This document shows positions 8,763-64,000 of a stretch of 64,000 bases of DNA, one piece after another; the first letter of the stretch is position 1; each line of letters begins with the position of its first letter. The stretch spans positions 310,774 through 374,773 of the forward strand of contig PJRA01000172.1 in assembly GCA_016987375.1 (NCBI GenBank), in the 5' to 3' direction. This DNA is from Brachionus koreanus. Lineage: Eukaryota > Rotifera > Eurotatoria > Ploima > Brachionidae. The notes beneath the pieces are model-generated. The model was not told the DNA's origin. It saw only the letters and a list, made by a program, of their open reading frames with translations, and ran no database searches. A program made the translations under genes and the position numbers.

Positions 8763-10092
8763 CTACGGCGAGTCTTTTATGTTAGTGACAAATGATAATG
8801 AATACTCTGCTACATTTAGAACATCTGTTGGAGTTAGGCAGGGTGGCGTCCTGTCTCCAAAACTATTTTCGATCTATATAGAAGACGTAATAAAAAAAGT
8901 CGAAAAAATCGATGTTGGGGTGAAAGTGGGTGACTTGAAAATCAGCATATTGCTCTATGCTGATGATATAGTTGTTATTAGCAACACCAAAAATGGCAGC
9001 CAAGAACAACTAAACGCAATTTCTGATTATGGTAAAACCACTGGAATAAAATATAATCCAGAAAAAACACTTTACATGACATTCAATAATCGTATTAGTA
9101 AGAGAGCAAAAGATAGAATAATAAACACGTCTGATAGTCCATTGACCCTAGATGGAAAGAAAATTAAGAGAGTTGATACAATGCGGTATCTTGGGTTCGA
9201 AATATCAGATGAGCTCAACAATATTAAACATTGGAACAAGAGGAAGAGTCTAGCCATAAATGCAGTGTCAAAATTGAAGACCCTGGGTATAGTAACAAAT
9301 CAAATGCATCCAAATATGAAGGCCCATCTTTACAAGACCTATGTGAGGCCAGTTTTAACTTATGGGATTGAGAATATGAACATAAATGCGAGCTCACTGA
9401 ATGACATTAGAAGAACAGAGGGTAACATAGTCAAAGGACTACTAACTATACCAAGGAGGTGTCGTACAACAAGCTTATTCTTGTCTTTGAATATCATGCC
9501 TACGGATTACATCATCAAAAACATTAAGGTTGACTTTTTCAATCGATTAATTGAAAATGAACTCACTAAGAAGATGATGATTGAGCTAGCAAAACAACCG
9601 ATTCCAGACGACTTCATTTGTGAAATACTGGAACTTACCCGAGAATTGGAAGAGGAAAACATGTCACTACAGGACAAATGCAAACTTGTTAAGCTGAATA
9701 TCACTACTAAATACCGTTCAAATCAAAGAAACGATGTCAAAGTCCAAAAGCTCAGAGATATATATAAGACAGGGAGAAAAGATAACATATCGGGCTTAAT
9801 ATTCCAGATTTGTAGATTTGATGTAGCTTAGTTTTCAAATCCGACAGTTTCCTATCAATTAAAAGTCAAACATTTTTTTAGGAATGATTTTTTCTTAGAC
9901 TAATTGTATTTTATCATTGAATATCTAAAATTGTAAATAGAAACTATGGCACTTTTTTAATTTTTTCGGTACCATTTACACACAATTTTGTAATTTTTAT
10001 ATTTTTATGCAAAACACAGTGCCCCTTATTTGACGGGTCACTGAGCAAGTGGTCGGCGATCGGCCTTAGCTTAGAATTAATAAATAAATAAA
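8763..10092 (+). mobile_element. 5'-truncated LINE with intact RT C-terminal frame
   Basis: A reading frame to 9831 starts inside the reverse transcriptase: VGVRQGGVLSPKLF (fingers/palm), LLYADDIVVIS (catalytic YADD near 8955), then GIKYNPEKT, MRYLGF and VRPVLTYGIE, the standard order of non-LTR RT thumb motifs. The frame is open to its natural stop, so this is a fairly recent copy that lost its 5' part (endonuclease and RT N-terminus). A 3' UTR of about 250 bp contains a locally GC-richer patch (about 10018-10070) and ends in TAAA repeats. Both flanks are (TA)n tracts ending in TTAAT, consistent with target-site duplication. Clade not assigned. Confidence 0.85.
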
Positions 10093-36306: not shown

Positions 36307-36921
36307 CTATTCAATATAGTCTAGATCATCCGGTATCTCGAATTGTTTGTCGATAATAGCATAATCGACTTTAAATTTATTCTTTAACCAAGATTTGAGT
36401 GAAAAAATATTCTCAATCCATTGATTGCAGGCTTTCTTAGTTTCATCAATTGAATGCAGAGTATTTTGGAAAACATTTGGATCGTTTTCTTTAATCGATT
36501 CGAGTTCTGTTAGTAATTTTTGTCTTTCATCTACTAGTAACTTATATTCTTGCAACAGGTTATTTCTTTTTTGTTCATCATCTTGACTATTTTCATAATT
36601 TTTAAGCATTTCCCTGTAATTGATGCTCTTTTCTTTTTCTTCTGTTAGTTTAGTTTCTATTTTACTGATTGTTTCATTGCGCTTTTTTAAAGCCTGACTA
36701 GGTAGAGACCAATAGTAAATCGATGTGCCTATTTTTTCACTTTCAACTAGACCATCATCGACTAAAGATAACAGAATGTCTTTGATGGTTTGAATTGTTA
36801 TGCCTTTCTCTTGGCTACATTGTTTTTCAATGTCTTTCAGCTGGAAAAAGTCTTGCTTCTCGTGAAAAAATTCGAGCATTCTCTTTTTTTTTTCATCGTT
36901 GCTTAAACCCCGTTTGGACAT
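36307..36921 (-). CDS. MND1: Meiotic nuclear division protein 1, intronless
   Basis: 204 codons; vertebrate MND1 is about 205. N-terminal winged-helix region: SKRGLSNDEKKKRMLEFFHE, KDIEKQCSQEKGITIQTIKD, LLSLVDDGLVESEKIGTSIY. A central coiled coil (about residues 80-150; LKKRNETISKIETKLTEEK) follows, then the C-terminal capping segment KACNQWIENIFSLKSWLK and FEIPDDLDYIE. Known role: with HOP2 (PSMC3IP) it stimulates DMC1/RAD51 strand invasion in meiotic recombination. Its presence implies retained meiosis, relevant if the species alternates sexual and asexual phases. It has no introns. The start codon is 149 bp from TRMT112 on the other strand. Confidence 0.96.
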   Translation of the reverse strand: MSKRGLSNDEKKKRMLEFFHEKQDFFQLKDIEKQCSQEKGITIQTIKDILLSLVDDGLVESEKIGTSIYYWSLPSQALKKRNETISKIETKLTEEKEKSINYREMLKNYENSQDDEQKRNNLLQEYKLLVDERQKLLTELESIKENDPNVFQNTLHSIDETKKACNQWIENIFSLKSWLKNKFKVDYAIIDKQFEIPDDLDYIE

Positions 36922-49132: not shown

Positions 49133-50050
49133 CTATTTATCTTTTTGTGTTTCAGTACCATTTTCATTTAATTTTTTGATCACTCCATTTTCTTTTGATT
49201 TTGGCTTTGGAGCAATATATGCTTTATAGAAAAAATGGAAAAATAAAACAAAATATGAAAAGTACATGACAAATGACCAAAAAATGTTTTCATAACTAAC
49301 ATCACAAGGACGATTTTGTTTGAGCTGAGAATAGGCGATCAAATTTATGTAAATGCCAAAAATCATTTGGGATATTTGACCACTGGTAATCGCTATATTT
49401 ACCCATTTAGGTATCTTAAATCGAAGAGCTCGAAAACCATAATATGAATACATAACAGCATGAACAGTATAATTCATAAGAACAAACCAGCGTCCAGAAC
49501 CAGTAAAATCTTTTGATGAATACCAACAGTAAATTAGTACAGTGGCATGATGATACCAGTGAAGAAAGATTAGCTGTTGCTTGCGTAAAACTATAAATGC
49601 AGTATCAACTAGTTCTGGAACTTTACTCAATATAAACAACCATGACCAGCATCCGGTTACTCCATATGTATAGTCTTCTGAACAAACCGAATGAACAATC
49701 CCTTTATTAGAAATTGTATAGACAAATTCTGGCCACACACGGATTGTTCCCATTATGCTAAATAAAGCTAAAACAAAGTTCCAAGCTATCAGAGCTTTTC
49801 TCAAGTCATATTTTTCTCTTGTTTTCATATAAGCTTGTCCAGCAAATATAATAACTATGTAAAAAAATGCATAAAAAAAGCTTGTGTGCCAGTTATTTAG
49901 CATCCAGGCACGTTTACCATCGACGTATTTTTGATTGAAAAATTTTTTTTCGTAAAAAAATAAATTGGTATAGTTTAATCCACTTTTAGATTGATAATAT
50001 CCATTTGTTATTATCGGTTCATATGATGGTCCACTTGGCTCAAAACTCAT
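49133..50050 (-). CDS. Fatty acid elongase, ELOVL3/6 type, intronless (copy 1)
   Basis: 305 codons without introns. ELO-family condensing enzyme of the ER membrane that adds two carbons from malonyl-CoA to acyl-CoA. Key motifs: KVPELVDTAFIVLRKQQLIF, the histidine box LHWYHHATVLIYCWY (HxxHH, active site), MNYTVHAVMYSYYGFRAL, and QMIFGIYINLIAY. Several hydrophobic spans (YAFFYIVIIFAG and others) fit a seven-span topology. Lysines at the C-terminus could serve ER retention. HWYHH with T-V-L-I-Y-C-W and the VWPEF motif favour the saturated/monounsaturated (ELOVL3/6) branch over the PUFA branch. The paralogue at 52105-53067 is in the same orientation. Confidence 0.93.
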   Translation of the reverse strand: MSFEPSGPSYEPIITNGYYQSKSGLNYTNLFFYEKKFFNQKYVDGKRAWMLNNWHTSFFYAFFYIVIIFAGQAYMKTREKYDLRKALIAWNFVLALFSIMGTIRVWPEFVYTISNKGIVHSVCSEDYTYGVTGCWSWLFILSKVPELVDTAFIVLRKQQLIFLHWYHHATVLIYCWYSSKDFTGSGRWFVLMNYTVHAVMYSYYGFRALRFKIPKWVNIAITSGQISQMIFGIYINLIAYSQLKQNRPCDVSYENIFWSFVMYFSYFVLFFHFFYKAYIAPKPKSKENGVIKKLNENGTETQKDK

Positions 50051-52104: not shown

Positions 52105-53067
52105 TTAATTATATTTTTTTCCATTGACATTTTTTTTGTCTTCGACTAATACTTTACCATTTTGTTTGGCCATATTTTTCCTTTTGAGAATGTAGGCATT
52201 GAAGAAAAAGTGAAAAAATAGAGCAAAATAGCTTAAATACATCAAAAACGAGTAAAATATATTATCGTTTGAAATATTGCATTCACTATTTGGTGAGCTT
52301 TTTTTTGTATGATAAGCTACCCAATTGACATAGCAACCAAAAATCATCTGAACTAATTGTGATGTTGTGATTAACTTAGATACGAACAATGGGACCCGAA
52401 TTCTAAGAGCTTTGCATGCATAATACGAATACATAATTGAATGAACAAAATAATTCATAGTCATAAACCAACGACCTGATGCGGTAAAATCACTGTAGCT
52501 ATACCAACAGTAGATTAAAACGGTTGCATGATGATACCAATGAAGAAATATGAGCTCTTGTTTGCGGAAAACAATAAAAATTGTGTCAATTAATTCTGGC
52601 AATTTGCTCATTATGAACATAAATGCCCAGAAACCTGTTACGCCATAGGCATAACTTGAATCACAAACTGAATAGACAATCCCTTTTTGAGTTATGCTGT
52701 AAAAAAATTCTGGCCACGTTCTGATTGTACCCAAAATGCTAAATGATGCCAAAACGATATTCCATATTATCAGTGGAAATCGTAGCTCATATCTTGTTTT
52801 ATTTTTCATATAAAATTTTATTAAAAATATAAATACTACATAGATAATTGATATATTAATGCTCATGGTCCAGTTTTTGTTCATCCATTTTCCAAGACCA
52901 TCCACGAATTCTTTTGACTCAAACAACTTTTCAAAGCCAAATATATGCGAATAAGAAAATGTCATGTTTGATTGTAAATTTTGATCAACTGGATTTAAAT
53001 CAAACATTGGTTTGAGGAAAAAAAACGAATCGACAACTTTTTCCAAAGCCAAACTCATTGTTGACAT
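52105..53067 (-). CDS. Fatty acid elongase, ELOVL3/6 type, intronless (copy 2)
   Basis: 320 codons, intronless, and clearly a duplicate of copy 1. Shared blocks: TIRTWPEFFYSITQKGIVYS, YGVTGFWAFMFIMSKLPEL, IFIVFRKQELIFLHWYHHAT (catalytic HxxHH), SGRWFMTMNYFVHSIMYSYY, QMIFGCYVNWVAYH. The N-terminus is about 15 residues longer (MSTMSLALEKVVDSFFFLKP) and diverged, as is the C-terminal tail (KRKNMAKQNGKV). Two intact diverged copies suggest different substrate ranges or expression. The ATG at 53067 gives the longest frame; an in-frame Met four residues later (MSLALEK) is also possible. Confidence 0.93.
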   Translation of the reverse strand: MSTMSLALEKVVDSFFFLKPMFDLNPVDQNLQSNMTFSYSHIFGFEKLFESKEFVDGLGKWMNKNWTMSINISIIYVVFIFLIKFYMKNKTRYELRFPLIIWNIVLASFSILGTIRTWPEFFYSITQKGIVYSVCDSSYAYGVTGFWAFMFIMSKLPELIDTIFIVFRKQELIFLHWYHHATVLIYCWYSYSDFTASGRWFMTMNYFVHSIMYSYYACKALRIRVPLFVSKLITTSQLVQMIFGCYVNWVAYHTKKSSPNSECNISNDNIFYSFLMYLSYFALFFHFFFNAYILKRKNMAKQNGKVLVEDKKNVNGKKYN

Positions 53068-60000: not shown

Positions 60001-61674
60001 GGCAAAGAAAACACTAATTTGAATTTCACTGACTTTACAGGAAGTCGTGAAGTCGGCATAGACATCGGGACACTAGAAGAAAATTCACCAAAACAGCCAG
60101 TTATCATGGAAGAAATTAACGAAAAAGACGATGAGTATAAAAACTTGCGCAGCATTCTAAACGAATGTCTTAAACCAGAAATAGAAACAAAGAATTCAAA
60201 TGGTTCTTTGTTTAATAGCTATGAAATTCATAATCAAAACTTACATCGGGCAACTAAATGTGAAAATTTAAAAGCTGAAAATGATGAAATCAATTTCGAC
60301 TACTTCGATGAGTACAAAAAAAATGCGAATGATTCTCAAACTTTAAAAAATAGCTCACAAAGTGAAATAAATGAGGAAAAAAATGCAATTTCTCTTAAAG
60401 ATCAAGATTTAGATTCTTTTGATGATAAAACAGAAGAAGTAGCCAATATTTTTAGTAAAGACATTGAGAAAAATCTGCCAGAATTATTTGGTGAATATTT
60501 GGAAGAAGATGTTGTTAAAAAAAAGACGAAAAAAATACAATTAGACCAAGAATCAATTGAAAGTGCGGCTAAGGACTCGTTGAATATATCAACTGATGAA
60601 CACTCTGAAGAAGAAGATTTCAAACCAATAGACAAAAATGCATTCAAAAACTTTCGTGTTGAATCCAATAATAAATTTATAATTGATGAAAGCAAAAGTT
60701 CTTTCAAAGAATTGTTTAAACAGAAGAGTGAAAATGGTGAAAAAAATGAAAATACACCCAATTATGAGCTCAAGGACAAGTCGAGCAAAGCTGACATTCT
60801 AAAACTTTTTTCAGGAGGAATAGGTAGCTCTAATTCATAAAAAAAAACATTCTTAATACTAAAAAATTATTTTTCTTTAGCTGAATTTTCTACTCCAAGA
60901 GTTTGTGTTTTGAACACACATTCAAAATCAGTCGAATTGGGCTTACATTTTAGCGATAATAGAAACAACATGATACTTGATATAGAAAAGAATTCGCCGG
61001 CAGAATTGGCCGGTGTTAAGCCTGGCGATAAGATTTTATTCATTGGTAGCGTTAATGTTGAAAAATCAACATGTGAAGATGTCAAAAATAAAATAAGCCA
61101 AGCTATATTAAGTTCATCTAATAACGAAATAACTCTAGTTGTAATGAATGCTATTGAATATAATATTTCTAAGTCTAACGAAACACTGTTGATTAAAAAA
61201 GAACTAGATAATGATAAAAATATCTTAGAAAAAAAAACTAATAGCCAAGATTCCATTGATGCTGTAAAATCTCAAAATGAAACAGAATTCAATCCATTCG
61301 ATGACATACCAAACGAAATGATAACTCCTTTTTTGCACTATTCATCTATCCCTCCACCAGACACATTTCAAGTAACTGATGAAGACAACATGAGAAATGA
61401 TTCTTTGGAAGAATCTACCAGTGAAACAGTGTCAAGTTGTATTGATATGAATAAGAAAAAAGATGAAATTCAAAACAATTTGAACGATATTGATTTTATT
61501 TCTAATTTTACATCAACAACTGATATTTATAATGAGACAAACTCGAATCCATCTAACTTTTTATTTCCAGAAAGTTCTCAATTCAAAATTCCCTGGTCAA
61601 TAGAAAACTCTTATTCAGAAAACACCGAAAACACGACAAAACCTATATCGGATCAATGTAAAAAAGAATTTTAA
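57035..61674 (+). CDS. Type I membrane protein: DOMON-like, Ser/Thr-rich, TM, PDZ
   Basis: Exons inferred: 57035-57239, 57294-57533, a 16-nt micro-exon 57580-57595 (uncertain), 57641-58550, 58605-58654, 58707-58951, 59008-59126, 59172-59460, 59735-60823, 60881-61674; about 1318 aa, phases closing. Order: signal peptide (MLICFIINVFICNFFSIFVS from Met at 57092); Cys-containing DOMON-like module (CDFFLDWSTINDDVAKFTLS...WIAIIFSN); Ser/Thr-rich mucin-like region (about 58140-58390); further ectodomain, with a possible SEA-like unit before the membrane; span ALALVFSLLVTVLVLGGALF (59764 on); acidic cytoplasmic region; C-terminal PDZ domain (about 60900-61150: VELGLHFSDN, SPAELAGVKPGDKILFIGSV). The PDZ domain suggests a scaffold at the membrane that binds C-terminal peptides. 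I do not recognise an orthologue. Confidence 0.75.
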
Positions 61675-62150
61675 TAATTTTAAAATCTTTTTTATTAAAC
61701 AGTGAATCAATAGTAAAAATGACTATACGGTAAATGTACTCTAATTTGTAACTTAATTTATAGTTTTATCTTTTTTTATTTATTATTTTATTTATATAAT
61801 TAAATATACTAACTTATTTCATATTTTTTTTTTTTTTTATAAAATCCAAAATGGTTGTCATCGGAAAAATTGAAATCAATTTTAAAAAGAAAAAATTTTG
61901 AAAAATTATTGAATCATAATCTATTAAAGCTCATTGTTAATTTAAAATAATTTTTTATTTTAATCTTACATTATATAAATACTATAAAATTTTATATTCT
62001 TAAATTAGATTTTATTTTTTTTAAATTAAAATTCAAAATTTAGTAAACAATAAATAAATTAGAAAAAATTTTTTATTATTTTTTTATTTCAAAATTTTTT
62101 AATTTTTGAATCAAAAATTTAAATTTTCGCGAGAAAAAGATTAAATAGAA
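61675..62150. other. Convergent 3' flanks
   Basis: Very AT-rich region between the PDZ gene's end and the SECIS element; nothing else seen. Confidence 0.4.
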
Positions 62151-62154
62151 TTAA

Positions 62155-62225
62155 TCGATTAAAAATCGATCTAAAGCTTTCTTTTTTAAAAGAATTCAGC
62201 TTCAAATGTCATAAATTTCTAATGA
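62155..62225 (-). promoter_or_regulatory. Candidate form-II SECIS element in 3' UTR
   Basis: Minus-strand RNA, in order: AUGA (62212-62209), CAU, UUGAAGCU, G, AA (apical unpaired pair), UUCUUU-UAAA-AAAGAA mini-helix, AGCUUUAG, AU, C, then GAU (62167-62165). UUGAAGCU pairs with AGCUUUAG (two wobbles) and AU with AU. The AUGA and GA sit opposite each other as the non-Watson-Crick quartet, and 12 nt separate AUGA from AA. The extra top helix defines form II. It starts 73 nt past the stop codon. Confidence 0.8.
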
Positions 62226-62285
62226 ATTTTATTTAATCTGTCCCAAGTACTTAAAATTTTGATTTCTTGTCAATGGAAAAATTTA

Positions 62286-63010
62286 TCATTTTTTAATATT
62301 TAATGCTTTTAAAATATCATCAGCATTAACCATTTGTGAAGCATCTTCTTGTTTGTATTCAAACAGAGCTTTACCATTTTGAGCTACTACTAAGGCTCCA
62401 CCATTTTGGAAGCCGTCTCCTTTCATGTCTCCCTTAATACCGAGTTCTTTACTTCTATTGTTGGCGTCAGTCCAAGCTTTCGATAGGAGTTTTTTAAATA
62501 AATCAAAGAATGAAAATCGTTGAAATTGAAGGGCTTTGTAGCATTCCATTTGCGGATCCACAAACAGTTCTAATAATTTCAAATGCGATATAAATTTATT
62601 TATTTTATTTTATTTTCTAACTCACCACCAGCAAAGTATCCTTCTTGAACAAACGGCTGAACAAAGCGTGAGTCAAATCCGATTCCAATAAAACTTTAGT
62701 AATCAAAATTATAGATTGATAGAAAACAAGAAAATTATTCTAAAAATACCGGACATTATTATTATCTAATGTTGGTTTTATTGAATTAGACAACTCTTTA
62801 GCTGCCAGCCGACAGAACTGTCATCCAAATCGACGAAAAAAAAGAATTACACATGGAGAATCTTTCCAGAATGTTTCAACAGCAGTTTTGGTCTAAATAT
62901 TTGAATTTTTAGAAATGCAATTTAATTTCTTTGTTTCTTACTGTTTCTATTTCACCAGCACTGTTAACTTTCTGGACAAGAATTTTCGCTATCTTAGACG
63001 GCGAAGACAT
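62286..63010 (-). CDS. PRXL2/SelU family protein with in-frame UGA (selenoprotein)
   Basis: Exons 63010-62942, 62892-62750, 62693-62626 and 62569-62286, phases closing at 187 residues if the TGA at 62823-62821 is read through. Family: peroxiredoxin-like 2 (FAM213 / SelU), thioredoxin-fold reductases; PRXL2B is prostamide/PGF synthase. Matches: SPCVILFFRRFG-U-QFCRLAAKE at the redox site, FIGIGFDSRFVQPFVQEGYF, AGELFVDPQMECYKALQFQR, SKELGIKGDMKGDGFQNGGA, then LVVAQNGKALFEYKQ. Vertebrate PRXL2B has RRFGC-x-x-CR there, so UGA occupies the first Cys: a U-x-x-C motif. Homology is uninterrupted on both sides, and a SECIS candidate lies downstream. The stop is TGA followed at once by TAA. Sec insertion is inferred; a nonsense mutation is the alternative. 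Confidence 0.85.
62821..62823 (-). other. UGA predicted to encode selenocysteine
   Basis: Codon between GGA (Gly) and CAG (Gln) in exon 2, aligned to the N-terminal Cys of the family's CxxC. The resolving Cys (TGT) is three codons on. Confidence 0.82.
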
Positions 63011-64000
63011 TCTTGTTCTATTTTATTCTTAAATTTTCTTAAATTATTGAAAATAAATTTAGTAAAAATTAGAGTTGGTTAAGTTTTTTATATTTAATCA
63101 CGTTCTTATTTCATCTTTATTTATTTATTACATTAGGAAAATTATGCAACAATTTTATGATTAAGCAAAATTTTTGAAAAAGCGTGATTTAGTTTATGTT
63201 GCAAATATCATTTCATAATGTCTATAATTAAACTATTATGCAAAATTTTAAAATGCTTTTCAAAAAGTTAAACTAAAGACTAAAAATTTATTAATGATTT
63301 AGATTAATTCTAATCCAAAGTATTATTTTAATGCTTTATCTTGAATTTAGTTTTATATGATATTTGGCTAAAACACTATCATTACAAGATACAATGCTAA
63401 TCATATTAATTGAATTTTTAAATAAAAAAACCAAGATCGTATTTAATTTTAGTGGGAAAACTCTTATTTTCAGGACTGATCTGATGCTATATCTTCTTGA
63501 TTTTTCGACAAATTGCTTGAATACTGATATTCTAACACACAAAATAATGCATAGTTTCATCGGGTTTCTTAGTAAAATCAGAATGAAACTGTTAATTCCA
63601 TTTTTTGTCATTTGTTGATTTTTTTATACATTGCATTTTATTTTTAAATTTGTTTGTTTACAGCATCTGTAACACTCAATGGATACCTTTTTTTATGCTC
63701 TTTATCATAGAGACTGTTTATAAGATTTCCAAAAATCCAATTTTTTTTACTCAAAATTTTAGTTAGACAAATTTTTAAACCCATTTGGATTCAATTTTAT
63801 GACTTGACTTAATAAAGTTTAGTGACATTTGTCGCATGGACTACGAGATAATTATCCTTTTTAGCCCATCATTGTTTGCTTAAAAATTCATTTGAATTTG
63901 TTTCGAATTTTTCATAGAGACTATAACAGTAGTTTATTCACCATTTGAAGATAATTTTAAAGTTCTTCTTGCTTCTGCGCAAATTTGCCGAAGCGTACTC
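63011..64000. other. Intergenic, nothing recognised
   Basis: AT-rich upstream region of the SelU-like gene. Overlapping open frames at 63336-63618 on both strands have no recognisable content. Confidence 0.4.

What the first reader, a model, noticed from the sequence alone, without database searches (positions are those of the whole stretch)
62286..63010. Selenoprotein U-like gene: UGA at the first Cys of the CxxC redox motif
Four exons close in frame only if TGA (62823-62821) is decoded. Its context is RRFG-U-QFC-R where the PRXL2/FAM213 family has RRFGC-x-x-C-R; identity resumes immediately and continues to the C-terminus. Members of this family are known selenoproteins (SelU) in some animals and Cys-containing in others. 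A rotifer-like SelU with Sec would be a useful data point on Sec/Cys exchange.
Basis: partly seen in the sequence, partly recalled or inferred. Interest (0 to 1): 0.9.

Follow-up and report, generated by a model that had tools for sequence, protein, structure and literature searches.

The report
Rotifer selenoprotein U (PRXL2B type)
A Brachionus-type rotifer gene for a small antioxidant-type redox enzyme very probably reads a UGA "stop" codon as the selenium amino acid selenocysteine at its active site; it is a rotifer member of a selenoprotein family already known in other invertebrates.

Summary
Four exons (63010-62942, 62892-62750, 62693-62626, 62569-62286, minus) join into a 187-residue PRXL2-family protein. 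It has one in-frame TGA (62823-62821) at the first position of the redox motif (RRFG-U-QF-C-R), and homology continues to the C-terminus. The closest named protein is from Brachionus plicatilis. A SECIS-like hairpin (62212-62165) starts 73 nt after the stop codon; quartet, helix, unpaired AA and mini-stem resemble candidates behind this genome's SPS2, TrxR and one SelW gene. The 83-Mb genome also holds tRNA-Sec (UCA), SepSecS, eEFsec, UGA-containing SPS2, a PSTK-like gene, TrxR ending GC-UGA-G and five UGA-containing SelW-type genes on one contig. SBP2 was not found. The refinement: it is the PRXL2B/SelU3 type (prostamide/PGF synthase-like), not fish SelU1. Sec-containing SelU3 in invertebrates has been in print since 2012, so this is a new member of a known kind. 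Two further points: the B. plicatilis and B. calyciflorus database proteins both lack the UGA stretch (in B. plicatilis exactly a 33-nt GT..AG segment), and rotifer-type relatives with Cys at the site exist, which suggests Sec/Cys exchange inside that clade.

The parts
62942..63010 (-). Exon 1 (23 codons, ATG start)
   Evidence: donor GTAAGA; N-terminus MSSPSKIA shared with P0001-P0005
62750..62892 (-). Exon 2, carries RRFG-U-QF-C-R
62821..62823 (-). In-frame TGA read as selenocysteine (residue 47), position of the first Cys of CxxC
   Evidence: Cys in 9us9; W 30, C 26, no residue 66, of 122 relatives
62812..62814 (-). TGT, Cys50, second residue of UxxC
62818..62850 (-). 33-nt GT..AG in-frame segment containing the TGA; it codes for exactly the 11 residues missing from the B. 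plicatilis protein P0001 (probable pseudo-intron of annotation)
62626..62693 (-). Exon 3
62286..62569 (-). Exon 4 with the terminal stop TGA 62288-62286
62165..62212 (-). SECIS-like hairpin: ATGAC quartet, 10-bp helix, unpaired GAA, 6-bp mini-stem, CGAT; 73 nt after the stop
   Evidence: the 186-nt stretch after the stop folds at z -3.46

Best explanation
This is a nuclear gene of a Brachionus-type rotifer for a PRXL2B/SelU3-type thioredoxin-fold reductase. UGA at codon 47 is decoded as selenocysteine. Shown from sequence: gene model, UGA at the catalytic Cys position, SECIS-like hairpin, tRNA-Sec and most of the Sec machinery. Inferred: the mRNA hairpin recruits an SBP2-type protein and eEFsec carrying Sec-tRNA(UCA); the ribosome inserts Sec at the UGA, 423 nt before the end of the CDS; the enzyme uses Sec47 as the attacking selenolate on a peroxide or endoperoxide (prostamide/PGH2-like) substrate, with Cys50 as resolving residue forming a selenenylsulfide that thioredoxin, and behind it the UGA-containing TrxR, reduces.
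For: Gene model and single TGA. Family and CxxC register; the form 9usa with Ser at both Cys is deposited beside 9us9. SECIS-like element at +73: on the two 64-kb strands of the window the scan has only two other sites, and 42 of 1500 dinucleotide shuffles of the 700-nt 3' region give any hit, 2 of 1500 one with score >= 20 and at most one mismatch. A like architecture (helix of 9-10 bp, 3-4 unpaired nt with AA, mini-stem) folds for SPS2 and TrxR, and with 8 bp for SelW L027. Machinery: tRNA-Sec 76.6 bits, anticodon UCA, SepSecS, eEFsec at two loci, SPS2 with TGA at KG-U-GCKVPQ, PSTK-like, TrxR ending TGC-TGA-GGT-TAA, SelW-type genes with TGA at all eight loci. Relatives: 30 W and 26 C, no other residue, among the 56 of 122 that have the site; 27 of the other 66 begin within five residues after it.
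Against: No reads, transcript, peptide or 75Se data. SBP2 not found: 8 L7Ae hits, of which the one I tested best matches RNase P p38, and a recalled human SBP2 fragment with no hit; the tool warns that an empty answer shows nothing. Rfam found no SECIS in the window at gathering score nor at E <= 10 in 61000-63100; it also found none behind SPS2, TrxR and two SelW genes, so it says little. I saw the hairpin by eye before writing the scanner. At the scanner's standard settings SelW L028, L026, L029 and L031 have no hit, L030 and L032 share one doubtful site, and L025 and L028 fold without the mini-stem. ATTAAA and AATAAA motifs lie 25 and 21 nt before the hairpin; early polyadenylation there would cut it off, though SPS2 too has such a motif before its candidate. 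That W means TGA is inferred: the DNA of those relatives was not seen (empty).
Confidence: 0.95

Rival explanations
1. The TGA is never translated because it lies in a 33-nt intron (62850-62818, GTAATT...GACAG), as the B. plicatilis database protein implies, or it is spliced facultatively.
For: The segment has GT and AG ends, a T-rich tract and keeps the frame; P0001 lacks exactly these 11 residues.
Against: It would remove FFRRFGUQ with half of the redox pair; all 56 relatives that have the site carry RRFG (44), RRWG (6) or RRFA (6) before it. It is shorter than the four introns measured here: 49, 56, 56 nt in this gene and 50 nt in SepSecS. The B. calyciflorus protein lacks 25, not 11, residues there, as expected of two pipelines dodging a stop. 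Rotifer-type Cys forms P0040 and P0120 read straight through. A SECIS-like element would be unexplained.
Confidence: 0.03
2. Assembly or sequencing error, or a rare allele, at a TGC/TGT codon.
For: No reads were available; one base separates TGA from TGT or TGC.
Against: SECIS-like element with low background; both Brachionus database proteins lack the same codon, as if it were a stop there too; the site is W (inferred TGA) in 30 of the 56 relatives that have it.
Confidence: 0.015
3. Decayed gene with a true premature stop.
For: One in-frame stop in a gene with one detected copy.
Against: 140 further codons open, protein 89% identical to B. plicatilis in the alignment; intact splice sites; the stop falls on the one residue where Sec is known in this family.
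Confidence: 0.005

Closest known systems
SelU3 of invertebrates, Sec form (PMC3473315; section 8 read, other passages seen)
   Same: PRXL2B (prostamide/PGF synthase) subfamily with Sec in place of Cys; invertebrate SECIS there are mostly AUGA_AA as here; the paper counts 8 SelU3 in 7 species, 3 of them Cys (sea urchin, amphioxus, sea squirt)
   Different: No rotifer in that main text (0 mentions)
Prostamide/prostaglandin F synthase (PDB 9us9; the gene name PRXL2B is recalled)
   Same: Same family, aligned over residues 28-185, RRFGC..CR motif
   Different: Cys instead of Sec; prostaglandin substrate not shown in rotifers
Vertebrate SelU1 (PRXL2A/FAM213A)
   Same: PF13911 family; Sec form in bony fishes (PMC3316567, passages)
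   Different: Seven PRXL2A proteins are separated from the window protein by a 100/100 branch
SelU of Schmidtea mediterranea (PMC3828610, passages)
   Same: Sec SelU in another spiralian; Cys in two parasitic flatworms
   Different: Subtype not stated in the passages seen

Membership tests
Eukaryotic selenoprotein | In-frame UGA at a conserved Cys/Sec site with homology on both sides | tested here: met
Eukaryotic selenoprotein | SECIS element in the 3'UTR | tested here: met
   Computed only: hairpin 62212-62165 with features of this genome's other SECIS candidates; Rfam silent on it and on four control loci; transcript end unknown
Eukaryotic selenoprotein | tRNA-Sec, SepSecS, PSTK, SPS2, eEFsec in the genome | tested here: met
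   the PSTK-like hit (69-70 bits) is far below its curated cut-off (382) and has no PDB match
Eukaryotic selenoprotein | SBP2 in the genome | tested here: inconclusive
Eukaryotic selenoprotein | Se incorporated into the protein | not testable with these tools
   needs 75Se or mass spectrometry
PRXL2/SelU (PF13911) | AhpC-TSA_2 domain above cut-off | tested here: met
   87 bits against 27
SelU3/PRXL2B | Groups with PRXL2B apart from PRXL2A/SelU1 | tested here: met
   38 rows, 100/100; only one PRXL2B reference, on a long branch
SelU2/PRXL2C | Would group with PRXL2C | not tested
   no PRXL2C reference was in the tree
Prostamide/PGF synthase | Reduces prostamide H2/PGH2 | not testable with these tools
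   enzyme assay needed

The most novel reading that the evidence does not exclude
The 33-nt GT..AG stretch around the UGA is a facultative mini-intron in Brachionus: with enough selenium the UGA is read as Sec and the full enzyme is made; with little selenium, splicing (62850-62818) removes the UGA in frame and gives a stable, Sec-free, redox-dead isoform, as the B. plicatilis database protein would be.
Probability: 0.03. Interest if true: 0.75.

Novelty: new member of a known kind. Interest (0 to 1): 0.4.

Why it matters
It documents a Sec-type SelU3 and the Sec trait in a Brachionus-type rotifer, a group used in aquaculture and ageing work. My searches listed no paper on a rotifer selenoproteome; most listed papers were seen as titles and abstract starts only, and 17 of the 37 papers were not listed. 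It shows a concrete annotation problem: both public Brachionus proteins found lack the active-site stretch. With Cys forms in close rotifer-type relatives (P0040, P0120) it offers close lineages for testing what Sec gives over Cys in the same enzyme.

Tried and rejected
Rfam for SECIS: nothing in the window, nothing behind four control loci either; dropped as a test. A covariance model from the other SECIS candidates: MAFFT put SPS2 and TrxR out of register, so no model was built. GPx as further selenoproteins: both GPx genes found are Cys. SECIS candidates of SelW L030 and L032 are one and the same doubtful site, and L028, L026, L029 and L031 have none at the standard settings; L028 has a weaker one (8 pairs, 3 mismatches). 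ARAGORN with its bacterial setting missed the tRNA-Sec, Infernal found it. DNA of the W-bearing relatives: none in viral or prokaryote contigs. L046 as SBP2: best PDB match is RNase P p38. PSTK-like L048: no PDB match. Papers checked for rotifer selenoproteins by passages: PMC8614756 (only GPx04 in Rotifera), PMC5333405 (one mention, in its reference list), PMC3253786 (a selenium-binding protein transcript up in B. plicatilis resting eggs, no selenoprotein of its own described in the passages), PMC5330540 (no rotifer).

Full report
The thing itself. On the minus strand, exons 63010-62942, 62892-62750, 62693-62626 and 62569-62286 have GT-AG borders and join into 188 codons including the stop, with a single in-frame TGA at 62823-62821. 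The context is FFRRFG-U-QF-C-RLAAKEL. The protein matches PF13911 (AhpC-TSA_2) with 87 bits. The only two solved-structure sequences matched are prostamide/prostaglandin F synthase 9us9 and its sibling 9usa, in which both Cys of RRFGCVVCR are Ser; the first of those Cys lies on the TGA. One copy was found in an 83.26-Mb, 92-contig genome. The nearest named proteins are B. plicatilis P0001 and B. calyciflorus P0002, so I take the organism to be a Brachionus-type rotifer; no name was given.

SECIS. Rfam sees none, at gathering score over the window or at E up to 10 over 61000-63100. A scan for RTGA-N, a 9-13 nt helix arm, AA, and NGAN with at least 9 pairs and at most 2 mismatches finds a hairpin at 62212-62165, 73 nt after the stop. 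I had noticed it by eye first, so the scan is a check, not a discovery. The window, both strands, has two other sites (48986 and 16923, minus). Of 1500 dinucleotide shuffles of the 700-nt 3' region, 42 have any hit and 2 have one with score 20 or more and at most one mismatch. In 123,382 strand-bases of 19 other loci, chosen from those fetched, there were 5 hits, two of them one site seen in overlapping loci. Positive controls from the same genome: SPS2, TrxR, SelW L025 and SelW L027 each have a hit in their 3' regions; SelW L028, L026, L029 and L031 have none at these settings, and L030 and L032 share one doubtful site. Folded alone, the inner parts of SelU, SPS2, TrxR and SelW L027 give a helix, three to four unpaired bases with AA on the 5' side, and a mini-stem; L025 and L028 do not show the mini-stem. 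The 186-nt stretch after the stop folds 3.46 standard deviations better than shuffles. Rfam found no SECIS behind SPS2, TrxR or two SelW genes either, so its silence says little.

Sec machinery. tRNA-Sec at C33 with 76.6 bits and UCA anticodon; SepSecS on the window's own contig, C42:294162-295570; SPS2 with one TGA at the KG-U-GCKVPQ position and best PDB match selenide, water dikinase 1; two eEFsec loci; a PSTK-like gene at 69-70 bits, below the curated cut-off of 382, with no PDB match. A TrxR-type gene, matched in pieces below its model's cut-off, ends in TGC-TGA-GGT-TAA. SelW-type genes carry TGA at all eight loci seen, five on C2 and three on C27 that look like copies of three of them. 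GPx genes are Cys, while PMC8614756 finds only the GPx04 subfamily in Rotifera (passages). SBP2 was not found: the L7Ae family gave 8 hits, one of which I tested by PDB search (RNase P p38), and a recalled human fragment gave none. This is a gap, not evidence of absence.

Relatives. In 122 proteins from two searches the residue at the site is W in 30, C in 26 and not present in 66, with nothing else (one search counted 123 hits and listed 120). Of the 66, 27 begin within five residues after the site, among them proteins named from Daphnia pulex, Daphnia sinensis, Penaeus indicus, Oratosquilla oratoria, Lineus longissimus, Parasteatoda tepidariorum and (labelled partial) Uloborus diversus, the pattern of a gene cut at a UGA. 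P0001 lacks residues 38-48, which in the window is exactly the 33-nt GT..AG piece 62850-62818; P0002 lacks residues 38-62.

Which SelU. In a 38-row tree the window protein falls with 9us9 and the invertebrate proteins, and seven PRXL2A (SelU1) proteins sit behind a 100/100 branch; with P0001 and seven W-bearing proteins it forms a 100/99 clade. The single PRXL2B reference is a long branch, and no PRXL2C (SelU2) was included. In a short-region tree (35 rows, 77 columns) the Cys forms P0040, P0120 and P0115 fall inside the rotifer-type clade (99/97), the first two near Brachionus with unstarred support (87/84); this would need at least one Sec/Cys change there. P0040 and P0120 carry what looks like a read-through of an intron at about residue 23.

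Known or new. PMC3473315 (section 8 read; passages) states that SelU3 is the most abundant group among its invertebrate SelU proteins, 8 in 7 species, with Cys only in three deuterostomes. PMC3316567 (passages) places all Sec-containing vertebrate SelU in SelU1. PMC3828610 (passages) reports Sec SelU in a planarian and Cys in two parasitic flatworms. Searches for rotifer or Brachionus selenoproteins and for SelU3 and prostamide synthase selenoproteins listed no paper on a rotifer SelU. Apart from passages of PMC8614756, PMC5333405, PMC3253786 and PMC5330540 and of the three papers above, only titles and abstract starts were seen, one search listed 20 of 37, and the library holds open-licence papers only. 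So: a rotifer member of a known kind.

How it most likely works. Inferred from the family: Sec47 attacks the peroxide-type substrate, Cys50 resolves, and thioredoxin with the UGA-containing TrxR recycles the enzyme. The natural substrate in rotifers is unknown; prostamide H2 is the substrate named for the SelU3/prFsy proteins in PMC3473315.

Noticed in passing
own genome C2:3206777-3214078 (L025, L027, L028, L030, L032), C27:755117-756697 (L026, L029, L031): Five SelW-type genes within about 7 kb, every one with an in-frame TGA in the redox-motif exon; three have near-copies on C27.
   Followed up: partly
own genome C42:294162-295570 (L010-L013): SepSecS, the enzyme that makes Sec-tRNA, lies about 77 kb from the SelU gene on the same contig.
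   Followed up: no
own genome C10:698130-698465 and C36:688747-689082 (L015, L016): Two eEFsec loci with equal open-frame length; haplotypes or duplicates.
   Followed up: no
window 49133-50050 and 52105-53067, minus: Two neighbouring single-frame ELO-family fatty-acid elongase genes.
   Followed up: partly
window 8779-9831, plus: Reverse transcriptase fragment (RVT_1), probably part of a retroelement; observed only.
   Followed up: no
window 36307-36921, minus: Mnd1-family (meiotic) open frame with both Mnd1 HTH and LZ3wCH domains.
   Followed up: no
own genome C22, C24, C25, C8, C21, C13, C31, C58, C1: 25 further weak tRNA-Sec model hits of 42.0-42.7 bits in two size classes (81 and 83 nt), probably many copies of ordinary long-arm tRNAs.
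   Followed up: no
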